From positions 1-57,073 of the forward strand of contig CAMAUE010000014.1 in the NCBI GenBank assembly GCA_945861245.1: DNA of 57,073 bases, written 5' to 3'. A program made the translations under genes and the position numbers. This document shows, one piece after another, positions 37,012 through 45,936 of this stretch. Every line of letters starts with the position of its first letter. The stretch's first letter is position 1. This DNA comes from Singulisphaera sp. GP187. GTDB taxonomy: Bacteria; Planctomycetota; Planctomycetia; Gemmatales; Gemmataceae. The notes beneath the pieces are model-generated. The model did no database searches. It saw only the letters and a program-made list of their open reading frames with translations, and was not told the DNA's origin.

Positions 37012-38148
37012 ATGTTTGAAACGGAAGAAACATTCGAGCCAGTGCCGGCTCGGATGCTAAATGAATTTACCTATTGCCCGCGTTTGGCCTATCTCGAATG
37101 GGTGCAGGGCGAATGGGCCGACAATCCTGATACGCTCGATGGCGAGTTCGTCCATCGCAATGCCGATCGGCCCGATCATCAGCCGATTGCGACGCCCGAT
37201 GCGGAAGGGGCCGAGGAAGAGAAGCTGCACGCGCGCTCAGTTCGGCTCGAAAGCGCGACGCTCGGCCTGGTCGCCATCGTTGACATTCTCGAAGTCGAAG
37301 GCGATGTCGCCACGCCCGTCGATTACAAGAAGGGCCATGCACCGGACATTCCCGAAGGCGCCTGGGAACCCGAGCGCGTGCAGGTGTGCGCTCAGGCGTT
37401 GCTGTTGCGCGAGGCTGGCTTCACTTGCAACGAAGGCGTCATCTGGTACGCAGCGTCGCGCCGCCGGGTGCGTGTGGAGTTCGACGAAACGCTCGTCATG
37501 CGCACGCAGGACCTGATCGCCGGCTGCCGGGCGATGGCGTCGAGCGGGCGCATGCCGTTGCCTTTGGTCGATAGCCCGAAGTGTCCGCGTTGTTCGCTGG
37601 TTGGCATCTGCTTGCCGGACGAGACGCATCTGTTGTTGCAAGAAACGCTCGCCGCCGATCCGGAGTTGGCCAAGGCCGTCCGGGAGCCGCGTCAGTTGCT
37701 CGCACCCCGGACGGAAAAGATCCCGTTGCACATCGTCGAACCCGGCGCTCGGCTCGGCAAGCGGGCCGATCGCATCATCGTCGAACTGAAGACCGAAAAG
37801 ATCGCCGAGGCCAGGCTCAAGGACATCTCGCAGGTCTGCCTCTATGGTCCCGTGCAAGTCAGCACGCAAATGATGAGCGAGCTATTCGATCGCGACATTC
37901 CCGTTTGCTACTTCTCCACCGGCGGCTGGTTTCGCGGCATCGCCCATAGTTTGCCGCACAAGAATATTGAACTGCGCATTCGCCAGCATCGCATCGCGGA
38001 TGATCCCGCGAAGGCGCTCGCACTCGCTCAGCAATTCGTCGCGGGCAAGATTCGCAATTGCCGCACGCTGTTAAGGCGTAACGCAGAAGGCGACGCTCCT
38101 GAACTAGGGATTTCGATCAGTCACGATGTCGTTGCCGCACGCTGTTAA
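37012..38148 (+). pseudogene. cas4-cas1: Cas4-Cas1 fusion, front part, broken by 74 bp
   Basis: 378 residues. Cas4 covers about 1-210: iron-sulfur cysteines C22, C191, C194 and C200, and nuclease motif DYKKG at 104. Cas4 trims and orients prespacers by their PAM. The Cas1 N-terminal beta domain follows from about 235 (PLHIVEPGARLGKRADRIIV) and runs to LLRRNAEGD. There a 74-bp insert shifts the frame, adds 15 foreign residues (from APELGIS) and stops. All Cas1 catalytic residues are lost from this piece. With the 74 bp removed the frame gives one 564-residue fusion of normal length. The Cas4 part and the beta domain may still be made. Confidence 0.9.
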
Positions 38149-38168
38149 GGCGTAACGCAGAAGGCGAC
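38058..38168. repeat. ectopic repeat-spacer unit inside cas1
   Basis: The same 37 bp of cas1 sequence (starting TTGCCGCACGCTG, ending GAAGGCGAC) stand at 38058-38094 and 38132-38168, with 37 bp unrelated to cas1 between them at 38095-38131. The extra length is 74 bp. The real array has units of about 73 bp (36 + 37). The size and the single duplicated target are those of one spacer inserted by Cas1-Cas2 at a false repeat. The duplicated piece carries a weak dyad, GTTA-AGGCG-TAAC, where the true repeat carries its hairpin. Confidence 0.85.
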
Positions 38169-38240
38169 AGCGACGGCCTGCTCGATTCGCTCAACCAATC
38201 CGCGAAGGAAGCCGAGCGAGCGGACAATATCCCGTCGCTG

Positions 38241-38780
38241 ATGGGCATCGAAGGCATGGCTGCCAAACGCTACTTCGCGGGCTTTGCGAAGCTGCTCAAG
38301 GAAGAACGCGGCTTCCGCTTTGAAGGCCGCAACCGCCGACCACCGACCGATCCCGTGAACGCAACATTGTCGTTCTTGTATGCGATGCTGGCGCGCGAAG
38401 TCACCGTCGCAGCGCTCGCTTGCGGGCTGGATCCGTATCTCGGCTTCCTGCATCAGCCTCGCTACGGTCGGCCCGCCCTCGCGCTGGACCTTGCCGAGGA
38501 GTTTCGGCCACTGTTGGCGGATTCCACGGCATTATCGCTCTTCAATACCGGCGAGTTGAAACCCGATGACTTCGTTTGCCGTGCCGGGGCTGTCGCGCTG
38601 AAGCCGCCGGGCAAGAAGGCGATCATCGCCGCCTGGGAACGACGACTTCTTTCGGAGGTAACCCATCCCATCTTCGGATACACGATCTCGTATCGTCGCG
38701 TGGTAATGGTGCAAGCGAGACTGCTGGGCCGGGTGCTCCTGGGTGAGCTGCCGGCGTATCCCGCATTCAAGACGAGGTGA
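38241..38780 (+). CDS. cas1: Cas1 C-terminal fragment
   Basis: 179 residues of the helical Cas1 domain, in the frame left after the 74-bp insert. It holds the complete catalytic set: E4 in MGIEGMAA, H71 in LHQPRYGRP, and D83 in ALALDLAEEF. The first in-frame ATG falls three residues before the catalytic glutamate. No ribosome site is seen, so synthesis would need reinitiation after the stop at 38146-38148, 92 bp upstream. The 24 residues between the insert and this ATG (SDGLLDSLNQSAKEAERADN and on) would be lost. It could be inert, or half of a split enzyme. Confidence 0.75.
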   Translation: MGIEGMAAKRYFAGFAKLLKEERGFRFEGRNRRPPTDPVNATLSFLYAMLAREVTVAALACGLDPYLGFLHQPRYGRPALALDLAEEFRPLLADSTALSLFNTGELKPDDFVCRAGAVALKPPGKKAIIAAWERRLLSEVTHPIFGYTISYRRVVMVQARLLGRVLLGELPAYPAFKTR

Positions 38781-38784
38781 ACCG

Positions 38785-39081
38785 ATGCGTTCGATCTTTT
38801 TGGTTGCCTATGACATCACGGAAGACAAAAGCCGAACCAAAATCTTTAACAAATTGAAAGGCTACGGCGAGGCCTTACAATACTCCTTGTTCCGCTGCGC
38901 ATTGACGCCCAGCGAACGGATGCGGCTACGCACGGAATTGTGGGGATTGATCAACCACAAGACCGACCGCGTTCTGCTGATCGATCTCGGCCCCGATGAC
39001 GGGCGGGGGCGGACCGCGTTGGAATCGTGGGGAAAATCGCTGGAGGACCCGGCGACGCACAATGGGATACTGATCATTTGA
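38785..39081 (+). CDS. cas2: Cas2 adaptation protein
   Basis: A 98-residue Cas2 with the ferredoxin-like fold start FLVAYDITEDKSRTKIFNKL and YSLFRCALTPSE. It forms the centre of the Cas1-Cas2 integrase that inserts spacers at the leader end. Normal length. The ATG with GAGGTG upstream is used; the earlier in-frame ATG lies within cas1. It is the last cas gene before the array. Confidence 0.93.
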   Translation: MRSIFLVAYDITEDKSRTKIFNKLKGYGEALQYSLFRCALTPSERMRLRTELWGLINHKTDRVLLIDLGPDDGRGRTALESWGKSLEDPATHNGILII

Positions 39082-39270: not shown

Positions 39271-42200
39271 ATCTCCACGGCTTCACCGCCGTGGCCGAAT
39301 TGAAGCAATCACTGGTTCACCTTTTGGAAATTCAACCACATTTATCTCCACGGCTTCACCGCCGTGGCCGAATTGAAGCATTGCGTCAACGTGCTGCCAT
39401 CCTCAAAAATTAGCGTATCTCCACGGCTTCACCGCCGTGGCCGAATTGAAGCAATCCGTTAATTTCTTCGTGCGTGCCGATGTCGATCAATCTCCACGGC
39501 TTCACCGCCGTGGCCGAATTGAAGCCTCCGTTAAATGATTCCAAGCGTTGCAAAATTCGCGATCTCCACGGCTTCACCGCCGTGGCCGAATTGAAGCCAG
39601 CCCAATGGCAGGCATTGCTACCCTTGCGTGCCAATCTCCACGGCTTCACCGCCGTGGCCGAATTGAAGCGACGCCTTCGACGCTGTTCCCGTTGACGCCA
39701 ATTGCTATCTCCACGGCTTCACCGCCGTGGCCGAATTGAAGCCAGGCTAGACTTCTGCTCTTCCTGTTCATCAAATCTCGCATCTCCACGGCTTCACCGC
39801 CGTGGCCGAATTGAAGCACCCCATCATCAATTGAACTTAGGATCAAATATGATACATCTCCACGGCTTCACCGCCGTGGCCGAATTGAAGCTCCGGCGGC
39901 GGCTTTGGGCCGCACAATCAACCGGCAGATCTCCACGGCTTCACCGCCGTGGCCGAATTGAAGCTCTGCTCTCGTTTTTCTCGTAGCGTTTTGAAAAAAG
40001 GATCTCCACGGCTTCACCGCCGTGGCCGAATTGAAGCTGACTCTTTTCCCTCGCACGCTGAAGTATCCAGGCCCATCTCCACGGCTTCACCGCCGTGGCC
40101 GAATTGAAGCACTTTTTGAGACGCTCTAATGGCTCGCAATACGGGATATCTCCACGGCTTCACCGCCGTGGCCGAATTGAAGCTCGGCGGTCTTGAGGTC
40201 AGCGGATTGCTCGCGGGCAATCTCCACGGCTTCACCGCCGTGGCCGAATTGAAGCTTTGCGTTCGGCGATCGGGGAATTGGTGGCGCGGGCTATCTCCAC
40301 GGCTTCACCGCCGTGGCCGAATTGAAGCTCGGTTGCTCGACGACAAGCGGCGATTGATCCGACAATCTCCACGGCTTCACCGCCGTGGCCGAATTGAAGC
40401 ACCGGATTTGATCGTCTCCCAGGCAAGCCGTGCTTCATCTCCACGGCTTCACCGCCGTGGCCGAATTGAAGCGCCGTCTACTTTGGTGTTACAGCGGAGC
40501 AAGCTACGCATCTCCACGGCTTCACCGCCGTGGCCGAATTGAAGCAGCGGTGGAACACTGCTGGCGACGGGGGCTGGCACGGATCTCCACGGCTTCACCG
40601 CCGTGGCCGAATTGAAGCTTTAACCTCCCCCCCCCCTACCCTAACCGTGGCGGTCATCTCCACGGCTTCACCGCCGTGGCCGAATTGAAGCATTCGCATG
40701 GAAAAGCGGCCTGTCGTCGGTGCGATTGATCTCCACGGCTTCACCGCCGTGGCCGAATTGAAGCGGCAGCTTTTGCGTCCGCGTCGCTGCGGCCAGACAC
40801 ATCTCCACGGCTTCACCGCCGTGGCCGAATTGAAGCTAATCCAACTCAGCACCCCGCCTGTCGAGGTTGCTCTATTCGCATCTCCACGGCTTCACCGCCG
40901 TGGCCGAATTGAAGCGAGACTAGTGGTAAACGGGAGGAACCCCGCACACCCGCATCTCCACGGCTTCACCGCCGTGGCCGAATTGAAGCTTCGTGAGGTC
41001 TGCCCACTCGGACCCCGCGACGAATCATCTCCACGGCTTCACCGCCGTGGCCGAATTGAAGCGTATGCGTCCATTTCGGTCATCCTTTCATTTCGTCGTT
41101 ATCTCCACGGCTTCACCGCCGTGGCCGAATTGAAGCAAATCGGGTTGAAAGGGTTTCAAGGCATATGGAACGAATCTCCACGGCTTCACCGCCGTGGCCG
41201 AATTGAAGCTATATCGAGGTAGTTGCACGATTTGAGAACGCGGTATCTCCACGGCTTCACCGCCGTGGCCGAATTGAAGCCTTGGTCGAACTCGACGGGG
41301 ATATTGTCGCGCACGGCATCTCCACGGCTTCACCGCCGTGGCCGAATTGAAGCGCTCCCTGCATCCCCGGTAAGTACATCAACTGGGTCATCTCCACGGC
41401 TTCACCGCCGTGGCCGAATTGAAGCGGTTTTTGCGACACTGGATAGAGCGCCCGTGCCTGATCTCCACGGCTTCACCGCCGTGGCCGAATTGAAGCCGTG
41501 GCGGTCAACCGGCGTTCGTGAATCTCGATCAAAATCTCCACGGCTTCACCGCCGTGGCCGAATTGAAGCAGCATCCTTTTTTGGCATGGCATCAACGGCC
41601 TCGGCATCTCCACGGCTTCACCGCCGTGGCCGAATTGAAGCTAGTCGAATGCCATGATTTCATCCCTTTTTTAGTGAGATCTCCACGGCTTCACCGCCGT
41701 GGCCGAATTGAAGCCCTCTCTGAGTTCATGTCTGACCCGTATCGGGTGTTATCTCCACGGCTTCACCGCCGTGGCCGAATTGAAGCTTCTCCGAAAAAAG
41801 CAAACTGCGTATCATGATCGAATCTCCACGGCTTCACCGCCGTGGCCGAATTGAAGCATTGCATCACCACGCCTCTCTGCCGAGCCATGAGGCGGATCTC
41901 CACGGCTTCACCGCCGTGGCCGAATTGAAGCTGCGCAGGCGTTGGACTCGCCCGTAACGCTCGCGGGATCTCCACGGCTTCACCGCCGTGGCCGAATTGA
42001 AGCAATGTAGGTGAGTGATCTTGCCGCCGACAACATAGACTCATCTCCACGGCTTCACCGCCGTGGCCGAATTGAAGCGCCAAGAGGCAGGTATCGATAA
42101 TATCGTATGGAGTTATCTCCACGGCTTCACCGCCGTGGCCGAATTGAAGCTCGAGTGGTCTAAGACGGCCCGCGGCGGCAAGCAGCATCTCCACGGCTTC

Positions 42201-44548
42201 ACCGCCGTGGCCGAATTGAAGCATCTCGGCTACAATCGCATCGCAAAGTGTCAGAATCATCTCCACGGCTTCACCGCCGTGGCCGAATTGAAGCAGTGGT
42301 GTACAACTACTGAACTACCATTCCCAGACGATCTCCACGGCTTCACCGCCGTGGCCGAATTGAAGCGTGGGCAAAAAATTCTAATTACCTCAGGGCCTAA
42401 ATTGATCTCCACGGCTTCACCGCCGTGGCCGAATTGAAGCTCCGATTGTCCCCGTCGTCCGGCGGAACTCTCGGAGTATCTCCACGGCTTCACCGCCGTG
42501 GCCGAATTGAAGCATCTAACTCGCGACGTTTCCAGCCAAGAGTTGACGAATCTCCACGGCTTCACCGCCGTGGCCGAATTGAAGCATTGGTTGTTTCATC
42601 GTGTCGGTGTCACCTCGTCGAATCTCCACGGCTTCACCGCCGTGGCCGAATTGAAGCGACTTAGATGAATCGCCTACGGCTGCATTGTGAGCCAATCTCC
42701 ACGGCTTCACCGCCGTGGCCGAATTGAAGCGCGACGTTCTTTCGGCAAATCAGCGATGATGAAAAATCTCCACGGCTTCACCGCCGTGGCCGAATTGAAG
42801 CTTTAATCACCACGTCGCATATCAGGGCATCGTCAAGCATCTCCACGGCTTCACCGCCGTGGCCGAATTGAAGCCAAAAAAGCAAACGCTCGCGAGTACC
42901 TAGGCTATATCTCCACGGCTTCACCGCCGTGGCCGAATTGAAGCATTCATGGTCGATGCCGCAACCAGCAGCGGTAATACGGCATCTCCACGGCTTCACC
43001 GCCGTGGCCGAATTGAAGCGAATACGTTCTTTCTCGCGGAGATGATGACCATGAGATCTCCACGGCTTCACCGCCGTGGCCGAATTGAAGCTTTCTTTTT
43101 TGCGCCGTTGACCTTCACGCCGATGAAATCTCCACGGCTTCACCGCCGTGGCCGAATTGAAGCAGCCACGTAGTCCCCCTTTCCTTACTTTTTGCGTTAT
43201 CTCCACGGCTTCACCGCCGTGGCCGAATTGAAGCATCATAAGTCATTAAGACTAAATCAAGCCACTCATTATCTCCACGGCTTCACCGCCGTGGCCGAAT
43301 TGAAGCGCCAAGCGAAGGAACCGCTACAATTTCGCCAGCCGCGATCTCCACGGCTTCACCGCCGTGGCCGAATTGAAGCTTTCGCCAAGGTAGGCGGCTA
43401 TCTTGCTCGACAATTCATCTCCACGGCTTCACCGCCGTGGCCGAATTGAAGCTAGGCGAGAAAGATATACACCGCAAGCGGAATTGAAATCTCCACGGCT
43501 TCACCGCCGTGGCCGAATTGAAGCTTCATCGTAAATTTCCCCGTAGAAAAAAGCTTTTAAATCTCCACGGCTTCACCGCCGTGGCCGAATTGAAGCGCTT
43601 AGCGACTTGGCTTGCAAAATATCCGGTAGGTTTATCTCCACGGCTTCACCGCCGTGGCCGAATTGAAGCGATTGATACCGTGGATTTGGCGGACGGGGTT
43701 GCGACCATATCTCCACGGCTTCACCGCCGTGGCCGAATTGAAGCATTGTAATGTCGAGTGTCGGAATGATTATTTCGACGCAATCTCCACGGCTTCACCG
43801 CCGTGGCCGAATTGAAGCTGAGAGAAACCGCGTTACCTTCTTTTGCGTCGCGCCGGATCTCCACGGCTTCACCGCCGTGGCCGAATTGAAGCCCGACGAT
43901 GAACGGCTTCCCATCGGCTTGCTTGTGGATCTCCACGGCTTCACCGCCGTGGCCGAATTGAAGCACGGGATACGGCTCAGGGCAGCCTCCGGCTTACGCC
44001 ATCTCCACGGCTTCACCGCCGTGGCCGAATTGAAGCGAGGCTGTCGAATTTCACGACGACGCTTGCAATGGAGATCTCCACGGCTTCACCGCCGTGGCCG
44101 AATTGAAGCTGGGCAATGGGCGCTCAAGGCTCACGCCTTTGATCCGATCTCCACGGCTTCACCGCCGTGGCCGAATTGAAGCGGATTTTGGCAACCGGAA
44201 TGGCGGCATGGTGAAATCGCATCTCCACGGCTTCACCGCCGTGGCCGAATTGAAGCACGCTCGAGCGCATCGACCTGCTTGATATGGCACTGAATCTCCA
44301 CGGCTTCACCGCCGTGGCCGAATTGAAGCCGCAAGTTGTTCCGCGAGCCGATCCTGCTCACGCCTGATCTCCACGGCTTCACCGCCGTGGCCGAATTGAA
44401 GCACGACAACGCGGGCACGCTCACGCTAGAATTCGGCGCATCTCCACGGCTTCACCGCCGTGGCCGAATTGAAGCCCAGGGCTTGCGTGAACGGGGCCAG
44501 TCGAATCATGCGATCTCCACGGCTTCACCGCCGTGGCCGAATTGAAGC
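39271..44548 (+). CRISPR. CRISPR array, 73 repeats, 72 spacers
   Basis: I located 73 copies of a 36-bp repeat beginning ATCTCCACGGC and ending ATTGAAGC; all looked identical. Spacers are mostly 36-37 bp (range 34-43). Repeat bases 5-11 and 18-24 (CCACGGC / GCCGTGG) form a hairpin with loop TTCACC, as expected for Cas6-type cutting, and the last 8 bases fit the 5' handle. Each unit is about 73 bp. Many open frames on both strands in this region are products of the repeat and not genes. The array is transcribed from the cas2 side. Confidence 0.98.
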
Positions 44549-45588
44549 GACGCTCCCTTCGGACTTCGGCTACATGTGGATTTCGACACCCATCCCTGGC
44601 GACAGCACACCTCACACGCTTTACCCTTCTCTGGCCCTTCAACAGTCTTCAACGTCCCATCGCAGTAGGGGCAAACATAGGACGGGATCGCGTCCAGTAG
44701 CGTAGCTTGAAGCGTCCGAATGCCTGCGATAACGCTCTGTATCGAGAACGTGTAAAGCCGGAGCGATTCATCATCAACAATGGTTTTCGCCATCTTGGAC
44801 AGTTGGCTAGACATTTCCTTGAACTTCGGCGCGACCTCGATAGCAACCAACGCATGACCGGACCACGGCACGCCGTTCCCGTCGCATGGCACGTCAAGAG
44901 GCTCATCTGGTTCAGGCGGACCATCGTCACACTGTTCCGGCCCAGTGGCAGGCTTTTCTTTCTTCGCCTTCTTCGCTTTCGCCTTCTTCGCCGCCTTCCT
45001 CACTTCGGTGCAACTTACGCAATCCTTGACTATTCCGACCCGCGCGCACCGTTCGCAAAGCATTTCCAGCTTAGGCTTTCGCGGTTTTCGCAGCTTCCCG
45101 TCTTTGCCTTTTCTGGGCTTGTCGGCTTGCCCAGATGCGGGTGAACTGGCATCGGATGCCAGTTGATTCCGGACTTCTCTCACTAAGTTGTGCGATACCC
45201 CAGATTGTTCTGCAACCTTGTGGTCACTCCACGCTACCCATTCCGTATCATTCAGCAGCGTTTCAACTGCCCGCCGTTTATCCAGGTTTGTGCGTCGCAG
45301 CCCGTTCAATTGGTTCGCACCAACGGCGTAGAGAATGGCATCTCTCTGCGTCCCTTCGCGCACGTCTGCCGGAACAGTTTCAAGCAAAGCCTCGCGTGCG
45401 CCATAGAACCGATGGAACCCATCAGCCAGCCAATACACCAAACCATCGAAAAACAACACCAAAGGCGGAAACGATCCAGGCGACGACAGCCAGACATCTC
45501 GATATTCGAGGTACGTGTCCTTATGCAACTCGGCCCGCATCTGCGTCCCGCCATCGGTGCGGATCAGATTGAGAGCAATCAATTTCAT
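44506..45588 (-). CDS. ParB-like nuclease-domain protein inside the array region
   Basis: A 360-residue protein. Residues 1-130 have the ParB N-terminal fold: IRTDGGTQMRAE, then LADGFHRFYGAREALLE. A helical segment with an HTH (SDHKVAEQSGVSHNLVREVR) is followed by a low-complexity lysine-rich part, two cysteine pairs (CERCARVGIVKDC) and CPYC near the end. AAGGA precedes the ATG. The last 15 codons or so are read antisense through the last CRISPR repeat, so the original C-terminus is missing or exchanged. ParB-like proteins of this sort are common in planctomycete mobile DNA; target unknown. Confidence 0.75.
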   Translation of the reverse strand: MKLIALNLIRTDGGTQMRAELHKDTYLEYRDVWLSSPGSFPPLVLFFDGLVYWLADGFHRFYGAREALLETVPADVREGTQRDAILYAVGANQLNGLRRTNLDKRRAVETLLNDTEWVAWSDHKVAEQSGVSHNLVREVRNQLASDASSPASGQADKPRKGKDGKLRKPRKPKLEMLCERCARVGIVKDCVSCTEVRKAAKKAKAKKAKKEKPATGPEQCDDGPPEPDEPLDVPCDGNGVPWSGHALVAIEVAPKFKEMSSQLSKMAKTIVDDESLRLYTFSIQSVIAGIRTLQATLLDAIPSYVCPYCDGTLKTVEGPEKGKACEVCCRQGWVSKSTCSRSPKGASLQFGHGGEAVEIA

Positions 45589-45754
45589 GTTGTTGTCCTT
45601 CCACGTCACACGGTTTTAGCCCCGTGGCAGCTTTGGTGTGATCCAGCAAACGCCTCAAACCGTGGTAGCTCGTCGCCGGAGGATACGCACGGAATGAGGG
45701 TTTGGCTCTGGTGTTTTTGGTTGCTCAGCGACGAGCTGTTTTTCTTTCTACCGG

Positions 45755-45936
45755 ATCTCCACGGCTTCACTGCCGTGGCCGAATTGAAGCGGCATCACGT
45801 CATCTCGGTGAAAAAGCCCGGAGCGGGATCTCCACGGTTTCACTGCCGTGGCCGAATTGAAGCGACCTGCGAGCGTTGGAGCGTGACGGCTGGATGATAT
45901 ATCTCCACGGCTTTACTGCCGTGGCCGAATTGAAGC
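45755..45936 (+). CRISPR. three decayed repeats, old end of the array
   Basis: Repeats at 45755, 45828 and 45901, each 36 bp, with two 37-bp spacers. All three share a C-to-T change in the hairpin loop (TTCACT or TTTACT in place of TTCACC) and two have one more change in CGGCTT. Mutated repeats are expected at the leader-distal end. They lie 1.2 kb beyond the main array, separated by the ParB-like gene. Confidence 0.95.

What the first reader, a model, noticed from the sequence alone, without database searches (positions are those of the whole stretch)
38058..38168. A spacer inserted into the cas1 gene itself
cas4-cas1 carries 74 extra bp: 37 bp of its own sequence duplicated on both sides of 37 bp of unrelated sequence. 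Seen directly: the two 37-bp copies are identical, and deleting one copy plus the middle gives a continuous 564-residue Cas4-Cas1 with a normal Cas1 sequence across the joint. The real array has a unit of about 73 bp (36 + 37). Cas1-Cas2 is known to insert spacers at off-target sites with duplication of a repeat-length target. Inference: the adaptation complex inserted a spacer into its own gene and so disabled itself.
Basis: partly seen in the sequence, partly recalled or inferred. Interest (0 to 1): 0.95.

Follow-up and report, generated by a model that had tools for sequence, protein, structure and literature searches.

The report
CRISPR spacer inserted into cas1 itself
A spacer-sized piece of DNA flanked by a repeat-length duplication sits inside the only cas1 gene found in this bacterium's assembly and breaks its reading frame; it was likely put there by the CRISPR adaptation enzyme that cas1 helps encode, which would stop the cell from storing new immune memories.

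Summary
Confirmed and extended. The fused cas4/cas1 gene of a type I-G locus carries 74 extra bp: an exact 37-bp duplication around 37 bp that occur nowhere else in the genome. The array has 36-bp repeats and mostly 36-38-bp spacers. A same-genus relative lacks exactly these 74 bp. The insert shifts the frame ahead of Cas1's predicted catalytic residues; no other cas1 was found. Best reading: a spacer integrated off-target, probably by the cell's own Cas4/1-Cas2.

It is not a one-off. In 170 stretches around cas1 (2.03 Mb unmasked) I counted ten such structures at eight loci, periods 72-74 bp; 1.13 Mb away from cas1 had none. Nine lie in or beside cas genes: cas1 (broken here, in frame in another genome), cas3, cas7, a primase-polymerase gene, the cas1-cas2 junction (three), just past cas2. 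The tenth, in an integrase-like gene, has a duplication equal to that genome's own 37-bp repeat and an insert with an exact copy elsewhere in the genome. No donor was found for this window's insert, reads could not be checked, and loss of function is predicted. Off-target integration is known; a natural hit in cas1 and recurrence in cas operons appear new.

The parts
38058..38094 (.). first copy of the 37-bp duplicated cas1 sequence (target-site duplication)
   Evidence: exact direct repeat; blastn to relative G005 ends exactly at 38094
38095..38131 (.). 37-bp spacer-like insert
   Evidence: only place in own genome within 3 mismatches; absent from 391 other genomes of the phylum; size equals the commonest array spacer
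38132..38168 (.). second copy of the 37-bp duplicated sequence
   Evidence: second blastn segment to G005 starts exactly at 38132
37012..38148 (+). 5' part of cas4g/cas1g: Cas4 plus the N-terminal part of Cas1; ends at a stop codon inside the second copy
   Evidence: NF049935 profile positions 2-342 of 546; translation ending ...HDVVAARC*
38241..38780 (+). 3' part of cas1 (179-aa ORF from ATG; frame open from 38133) with the invariant E, H and D residues
   Evidence: NF049935 positions 364-546; invariant E389, H456, D468 of P0001; frame
38785..39081 (+). cas2
   Evidence: TIGR01573
30709..33462 (+). cas3g
   Evidence: TIGR02621
33414..34271 (+). cas8g2
   Evidence: TIGR04106
34268..35467 (+). 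csb1 (cas7g)
   Evidence: TIGR02570
35464..36972 (+). csb2 (cas5/6)
   Evidence: TIGR02165
39082..39270 (+). leader (stretch between cas2 and the first repeat)
   Evidence: position; function inferred
39271..44548 (+). CRISPR array: 73 identical 36-bp repeats

Best explanation
The 74 extra bp in cas4/cas1 are most likely a spacer that CRISPR adaptation integrated off-target: a captured fragment of about 37 bp was probably joined to the two strands of cas1 at staggered positions one repeat-length apart, and gap filling would then have duplicated that stretch. Shown: the exact 37-bp duplication, the unrelated 37-bp middle, the matching array unit, the empty site in relatives, the frame break, and the same architecture at seven other loci. 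Inferred: that this cell's own Cas4/1-Cas2 did it rather than a relative's enzyme; that strand transfer and gap filling went as in normal acquisition. Predicted, untested: with Cas1 split ahead of its catalytic residues and no second cas1 found, new spacer acquisition has stopped while the interference genes and the old array remain usable. The event looks recent, since the two copies are identical and the 3' part of cas1 is still open.
For: Exact 37/37/37 structure against 36-bp repeats and 34-43-bp spacers, 37 commonest. Relative G005 lacks exactly these 74 bp; three same-genus loci align over the whole gene in one piece. Middle found once in the genome and in 1 of 392 genomes of the phylum, the own one. 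Only one cas1, in two pieces. Ten structures of period 72-74 at eight cas loci, none in background at 70-76. Four of those loci came from a second batch fetched after the idea was formed. In G016 the duplication in an integrase-like gene is 37 bp, that genome's own repeat is 37 bp in 19 of 19 copies, and the 37-bp insert has an exact second copy on another contig with different flanks. In L117, L234, L236 and L245 the local arrays have 36- or 37-bp repeats and a commonest period of 73 (tied with 72 in L236).
Against: No donor for this insert: nothing in 4 IMG/VR scans or INPHARED, no second copy in the own genome; in PLSDB only chance-level hits, E = 1. A donor in the own genome was found for only 1 of 6 inserts searched. 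The target does not resemble the array repeat: 13 of 36 matches, reached by 14% of 36-mers of the gene on single strands and by 23% of 36-mers of the unmasked window on the better strand; at the six I-G sites tested, the window's included, 11% to 91% of local 36-mers match as well or better. The duplication is 37 bp, the repeat 36. The one traced donor (G016) has flanks CCT and GTT, not the I-G motifs TTN (recalled) or GAA (passages). The genome is a fragmented assembly (289 contigs), probably a metagenome bin like its relatives (titles), and reads were not available.
Confidence: 0.88

Rival explanations
1. Assembly artefact: a mis-joined or chimeric read created the duplication.
For: The window is one contig of a 289-contig assembly; no reads could be checked.
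Against: The middle is not from elsewhere in the assembly. The same sizes recur in seven other genomes, including arms that have since diverged: 5 mismatches in 36 in G117 and 4 in 36 in G139. Mis-joins would not single out periods of 72-74.
Confidence: 0.05
2. A DNA repair or slippage event with filler DNA that happens to have spacer dimensions, with no role for Cas1.
For: The target site has no visible similarity to the repeat.
Against: Repair fillers and duplications have no fixed size (general knowledge), whereas the ten counted structures have periods 72-74 and 1.13 Mb of background has none at 70-76. In G016 the duplication equals the local repeat length and the insert is an exact 37-bp copy of a distant site.
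Confidence: 0.05
3. The spacer was put in by another cell's or another system's Cas1-Cas2, and the broken gene was later acquired by transfer.
For: cas operons move horizontally (general knowledge). G005 shares the cas4/1 to leader region at 92-93% DNA identity, while its effector genes align only in pieces, some at 73-85% and some at 90-96%.
Against: Array, leader and broken cas1 sit together; no second cas1 was found.
Confidence: 0.1
4. The split gene still works: the two fragments reassemble, or translation changes frame, so the insert is neutral.
For: The 3' fragment is still open and has an ATG three codons before the invariant E.
Against: The 5' frame stops at 38146-38148 inside the second copy, so no single frame joins the two parts. 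Residues just before the break (K346, R351, T352, R355, R356 of P0001) are invariant in 17 aligned proteins.
Confidence: 0.1

Closest known systems
Non-canonical (off-target) Cas1-Cas2 spacer integration in E. coli (Nivala, Shipman and Church 2018)
   Same: A spacer enters the chromosome outside the array. From recall of its abstract, putative natural cases were also reported in Yersinia pestis and Sulfolobus islandicus; the paper is not held here, and I saw only its citations in other papers.
   Different: There, sites resembled the native CRISPR locus (recalled). Here the I-G target sites tested do not resemble the repeat, one site is cas1 itself, and nine of ten lie in or beside cas genes.
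In vitro off-target integration by S. thermophilus Cas1-Cas2 (PMC6895254, passages read)
   Same: Low-level integration at non-CRISPR plasmid sites; the distance to the second attack is set by a ruler.
   Different: Those sites favoured a G and resembled the leader-repeat junction, and were probably half-site products; here both sides are complete and inherited.
Ectopic spacer acquisition in S. thermophilus CRISPR arrays (PMC7999890, listing and start of abstract only)
   Same: A spacer integrates at the wrong place.
   Different: Inside an array, not in a gene.
Type I-G Cas4/1-Cas2 adaptation complex (PDB 7mi4 family; PMC10504553, passages)
   Same: The interrupted gene is a member: the intact relative P0001 aligns end to end with the 7mi4 chain.
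   Different: The window's copy is split.

Membership tests
Off-target Cas1-Cas2 spacer integration | duplication of a stretch as long as the repeat | tested here: met
   37 bp against a 36-bp repeat, off by one or with one chance base; in G016 37 against 37
Off-target Cas1-Cas2 spacer integration | insert of spacer length | tested here: met
   37 bp; 32 of 74 array spacers are 37 bp
Off-target Cas1-Cas2 spacer integration | empty site in close relatives | tested here: met
Off-target Cas1-Cas2 spacer integration | insert traceable to a donor sequence | tested here: inconclusive
   no donor for the window; donor found for 1 of the 6 inserts searched in their own genomes, G016
Off-target Cas1-Cas2 spacer integration | site resembles leader-repeat junction | tested here: not met
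   a preference reported for E. coli (recalled) and S. thermophilus, which I do not treat as a defining requirement
Off-target Cas1-Cas2 spacer integration | depends on Cas1 activity | not testable with these tools
   needs an experiment
Type I-G CRISPR-Cas | cas3g, cas8g2, csb1, csb2, fused cas4/cas1, cas2, array | tested here: met
   NCBIfam matches, (each half of the split cas4g/cas1g is below the full-length cut-off); array
Transposon or casposon insertion | mobile element with its own ends, longer than 37 bp | tested here: not met
   the insert is 37 bp with one copy in the genome
Genuine CRISPR mini-array | repeats match a CRISPR repeat and do not belong to a gene | tested here: not met
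   the repeated unit is cas1 coding sequence

The most novel reading that the evidence does not exclude
CRISPR adaptation enzymes, notably Cas4/1-Cas2 of type I-G, keep mutating their own cas operons by off-target spacer integration. Some hits break the adaptation gene and so end adaptation; others land in frame (36+36 = 72 bp = 24 codons) and become new loops and tails of Cas proteins, so that adaptation is self-limiting and also a source of cas gene evolution.
Probability: 0.3. Interest if true: 0.88.

Novelty: new variant of a known kind. Interest (0 to 1): 0.77.

Why it matters
Off-target integration by CRISPR integrases is known mainly from overexpression and test-tube work. Here is a natural case in which the likely victim is the integrase gene itself, plus a set of sister events that can be counted and dated. 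This makes three open questions testable in sequence data: how often adaptation goes wrong in nature, whether cas operons are preferred sites or merely tolerant ones, and whether in-frame spacer insertions have shaped Cas proteins. It also gives a simple way by which a lineage could lose adaptation while keeping its old immunity.

Tried and rejected
Donor search for the insert led nowhere: own genome with up to 3 mismatches, IMG/VR with the whole 37-mer, two inner words and a degenerate back-translation, INPHARED, PLSDB with two E = 1 hits taken as chance, 392 genomes of the phylum, and the cell's own array, 72 spacers, with a longest shared word of 8. Inserts of other loci: L117, G139 (one of its three), G002 and G016 gave no exact IMG/VR match; L117 had one E = 0.4 phage hit taken as chance; G016 none in phages.

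Resemblance of target sites to the repeat or leader was sought and not found. L114 (58/73) and L236 at 11551 (47/73) have the right period but look like palindromic multi-copy repeats beside transposase-like frames (recognised by eye, no profile search) and were rejected. L110 pairs are coding repeats, L209 an 18-bp A+T-rich pair; neither was counted. Dropped before the final count: L098, L217 and L089 (edges of real arrays), L082 (a real CRISPR repeat pair) and L113 at 12571 (32/34, period 75, low complexity); L199 (period 71, 29/34) fell below the 30/34 limit. L276 in the background is a two-copy piece of a real I-G-like repeat, seen and left out by the array-word filter. The strict exact scan did not list L117 and L234 at 11147, apparently because of its complexity and array-word filters; the tolerant scan kept them.

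One search used a mistyped pattern for G018; it still reported the two known places of that repeat and no further copy of them. No structure was predicted.

Full report
What is there. The window is one whole contig (G000:C14) of a 6.04-Mb, 94.7% complete assembly. It holds a type I-G locus: cas3g, cas8g2, csb1, csb2, cas4g/cas1g and cas2, then 73 identical 36-bp repeats. The cas4g/cas1g gene carries a 37-bp sequence twice, at 38058-38094 and 38132-38168, without a mismatch, around 37 bp of other sequence. The 5' frame ends at a stop inside the second copy (38146-38148), and the 3' frame is open from 38133 to 38780. PF01867 finds cas1 in two pieces here and nowhere else in the genome.

The empty site. 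Joining the flanks in a script gives 564 residues that are 97.5% identical to the gene of G005 over its whole length; two further same-genus loci match over the whole length at 85% and 84%. In a DNA alignment G005 lacks exactly 74 bp, and blastn to its contig breaks into segments ending at 38094 and starting at 38132, at 91.7% and 93.2% identity. G005's contig appears to be SIAQ01000041.1, whose product is 100% identical to P0001, a cluster of four member sequences. The break follows a stretch with many invariant residues, and the invariant E389, H456 and D468 of P0001 all fall in the 3' part. That these are the catalytic triad is recalled from other Cas1 proteins. P0001 aligns end to end with the solved Cas4/Cas1 fusion 7mi4.

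The sizes fit adaptation. Of 74 spacers, 32 are 37 bp, 23 are 36 and 8 are 38. A one-base uncertainty remains for the window: 37+37, or 36+38 with a chance match. The insert's G+C (0.51) is close to the mean of 72 array spacers (0.54). Its donor is unknown after all the searches listed under Tried and rejected.

It recurs. While scanning the first 37 held stretches (some overlapping) for chance repeats I saw two more structures of the same kind, so I tested the pattern. In the final scan, arms of 34 bp with at least 28 matches and periods of 46-250 were sought in 170 non-redundant stretches around cas1 (2.03 Mb after masking real arrays) and in 68 other stretches (1.13 Mb), which lie away from the cas1 places listed but were not otherwise checked for cas genes. 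The first gave 52 pairs and the second 20. With arms of at least 30/34 and periods 70-76, the cas set has 13 pairs; two are array edges (L098, L217) and one is low complexity (L113), leaving ten at eight loci. At the other 198 periods the cas set has 17 such pairs, 15 without the two that are real CRISPR repeats, so 0.53 would be expected at seven periods (Poisson P about 3e-10; the three pairs in G139 are counted as if independent). The background has four at that strictness, none at 70-76; at the cas rate per locus 4.5 would be expected, P = 0.011. The period range was chosen after the first cases were seen, but it is the array unit. Four of the eight loci (L178, L234, L236, L245) come from a batch fetched after the idea was formed. 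The background comes from only 17 genomes, so the statement that cas operons are enriched is weaker than the statement that the period is special.

The ten structures. (1) The window: cas1, frame broken. (2) G117 (L236): 72 bp within the Cas1 part of a Cas4/1 gene, in frame, arms with 5 mismatches in 36; the 761-aa frame is intact. (3) A Rhodanobacter sp. metagenome genome (L117): 72 bp in frame near the end of cas3g; a 55%-identical relative (L043) runs straight through. (4) G002 (L037): the end of cas7/DevR of a type I-MYXAN operon; a 64%-identical relative (L029) has a gap there. (5) G018 (L038): 72 bp in frame near the end of a CRISPR-associated primase-polymerase gene next to cas1; no relative was available. 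(6-8) G139 (L234): three pairs between cas1 and cas2, with more diverged copies two periods apart; the cas2 start motif lies 642 bp after cas1, against 18-85 bp in 17 other I-G loci that I picked. (9) G143 (L178): about 120 bp downstream of cas2, between genes. (10) G016 (L245/L277): a tyrosine-recombinase-like gene about 9 kb from cas4/1. The XerC match is weak (21 bits, below its cut-off), and the HALRHTY box is recognised from memory. Cases 5 and 9 are the weakest, since neither an empty site nor a local array was available for G018, and G143's array was not identified.

The best-traced case. In G016 the duplication is 37 bp, the genome's own repeat is 37 bp in 19 of 19 copies, and the 37-bp insert has one more exact copy, on contig C9, with different flanks. 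The donor overlaps an inverted repeat whose 23-bp arms occur only there. Its flanks (CCT, GTT) do not show a known I-G motif, which counts against simple PAM-guided capture. In the five other genomes searched the insert tried has no second copy.

How it most likely works. In normal acquisition Cas1 joins the two 3' ends of a prespacer to the two strands at the ends of the first repeat, with the PAM end last in Cas4 systems (PMC10504553, passages), and the gaps are then filled. A ruler sets the distance of the second attack in several types (PMC6895254, passages). If the first attack occurs in ordinary DNA and the ruler still operates, the result would be what is seen here. The six I-G sites tested show no likeness to the repeat, so specificity would come from distance and perhaps nearness, not sequence. 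Whether cas operons are hit more often because they are near the site of synthesis or the leader, or because such hits are tolerated or useful there, cannot be told from these data.

What is known. Off-target integration was described in E. coli by Nivala and colleagues in 2018; that paper is not held, so I rely on its citations and on recall of its abstract, which names putative natural cases. In my searches I saw no report of a natural spacer in cas1 or of recurrence in cas operons; I judged most hits from listings and starts of abstracts, and the library lacks most subscription papers, so this is weak evidence of novelty. I therefore file the finding as a new variant of a known kind.

Noticed in passing
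window 44549-45754: A 1206-bp block sits inside the array between repeat 73 and three variant repeats (45755-45936); its minus-strand ORF (44506-45609) matches a phage ParB-like partition family (PHROG 1033, E 1.6e-14) and no Pfam family.
   Followed up: partly
L234 10895-11530 (G139:C6): About 600 bp between cas1 and cas2 look like a decayed series of nested off-target insertions of 74 bp, a kind of accidental second array.
   Followed up: partly
L234 9171-10895 (G139:C6): The Cas1 part has an extra loop of roughly 25-32 residues at about the profile position where G117's in-frame insertion lies; it could be an old insertion, but I saw no repeat there.
   Followed up: no
L178 636-723 (G143:C627): A second pair with 20-bp arms and period 68 straddles the 3' end of cas2, close to the 38/73 pair.
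   Followed up: no
L114 9781 and L236 11551: Palindromic-looking multi-copy repeats with a 73-bp period near cas genes, beside transposase-like frames (by eye); they mimic the spacer-insertion signature and must be filtered in any survey.
   Followed up: partly
L279, G016:C9:108881-108959: Inverted-repeat element with 23-bp arms that overlaps the second copy of the G016 insert; its arms occur only here in the genome.
   Followed up: partly
window 38058-38094: Three differences from G005 fall within these 37 bp and are shared by both copies, so they probably predate the duplication.
   Followed up: no
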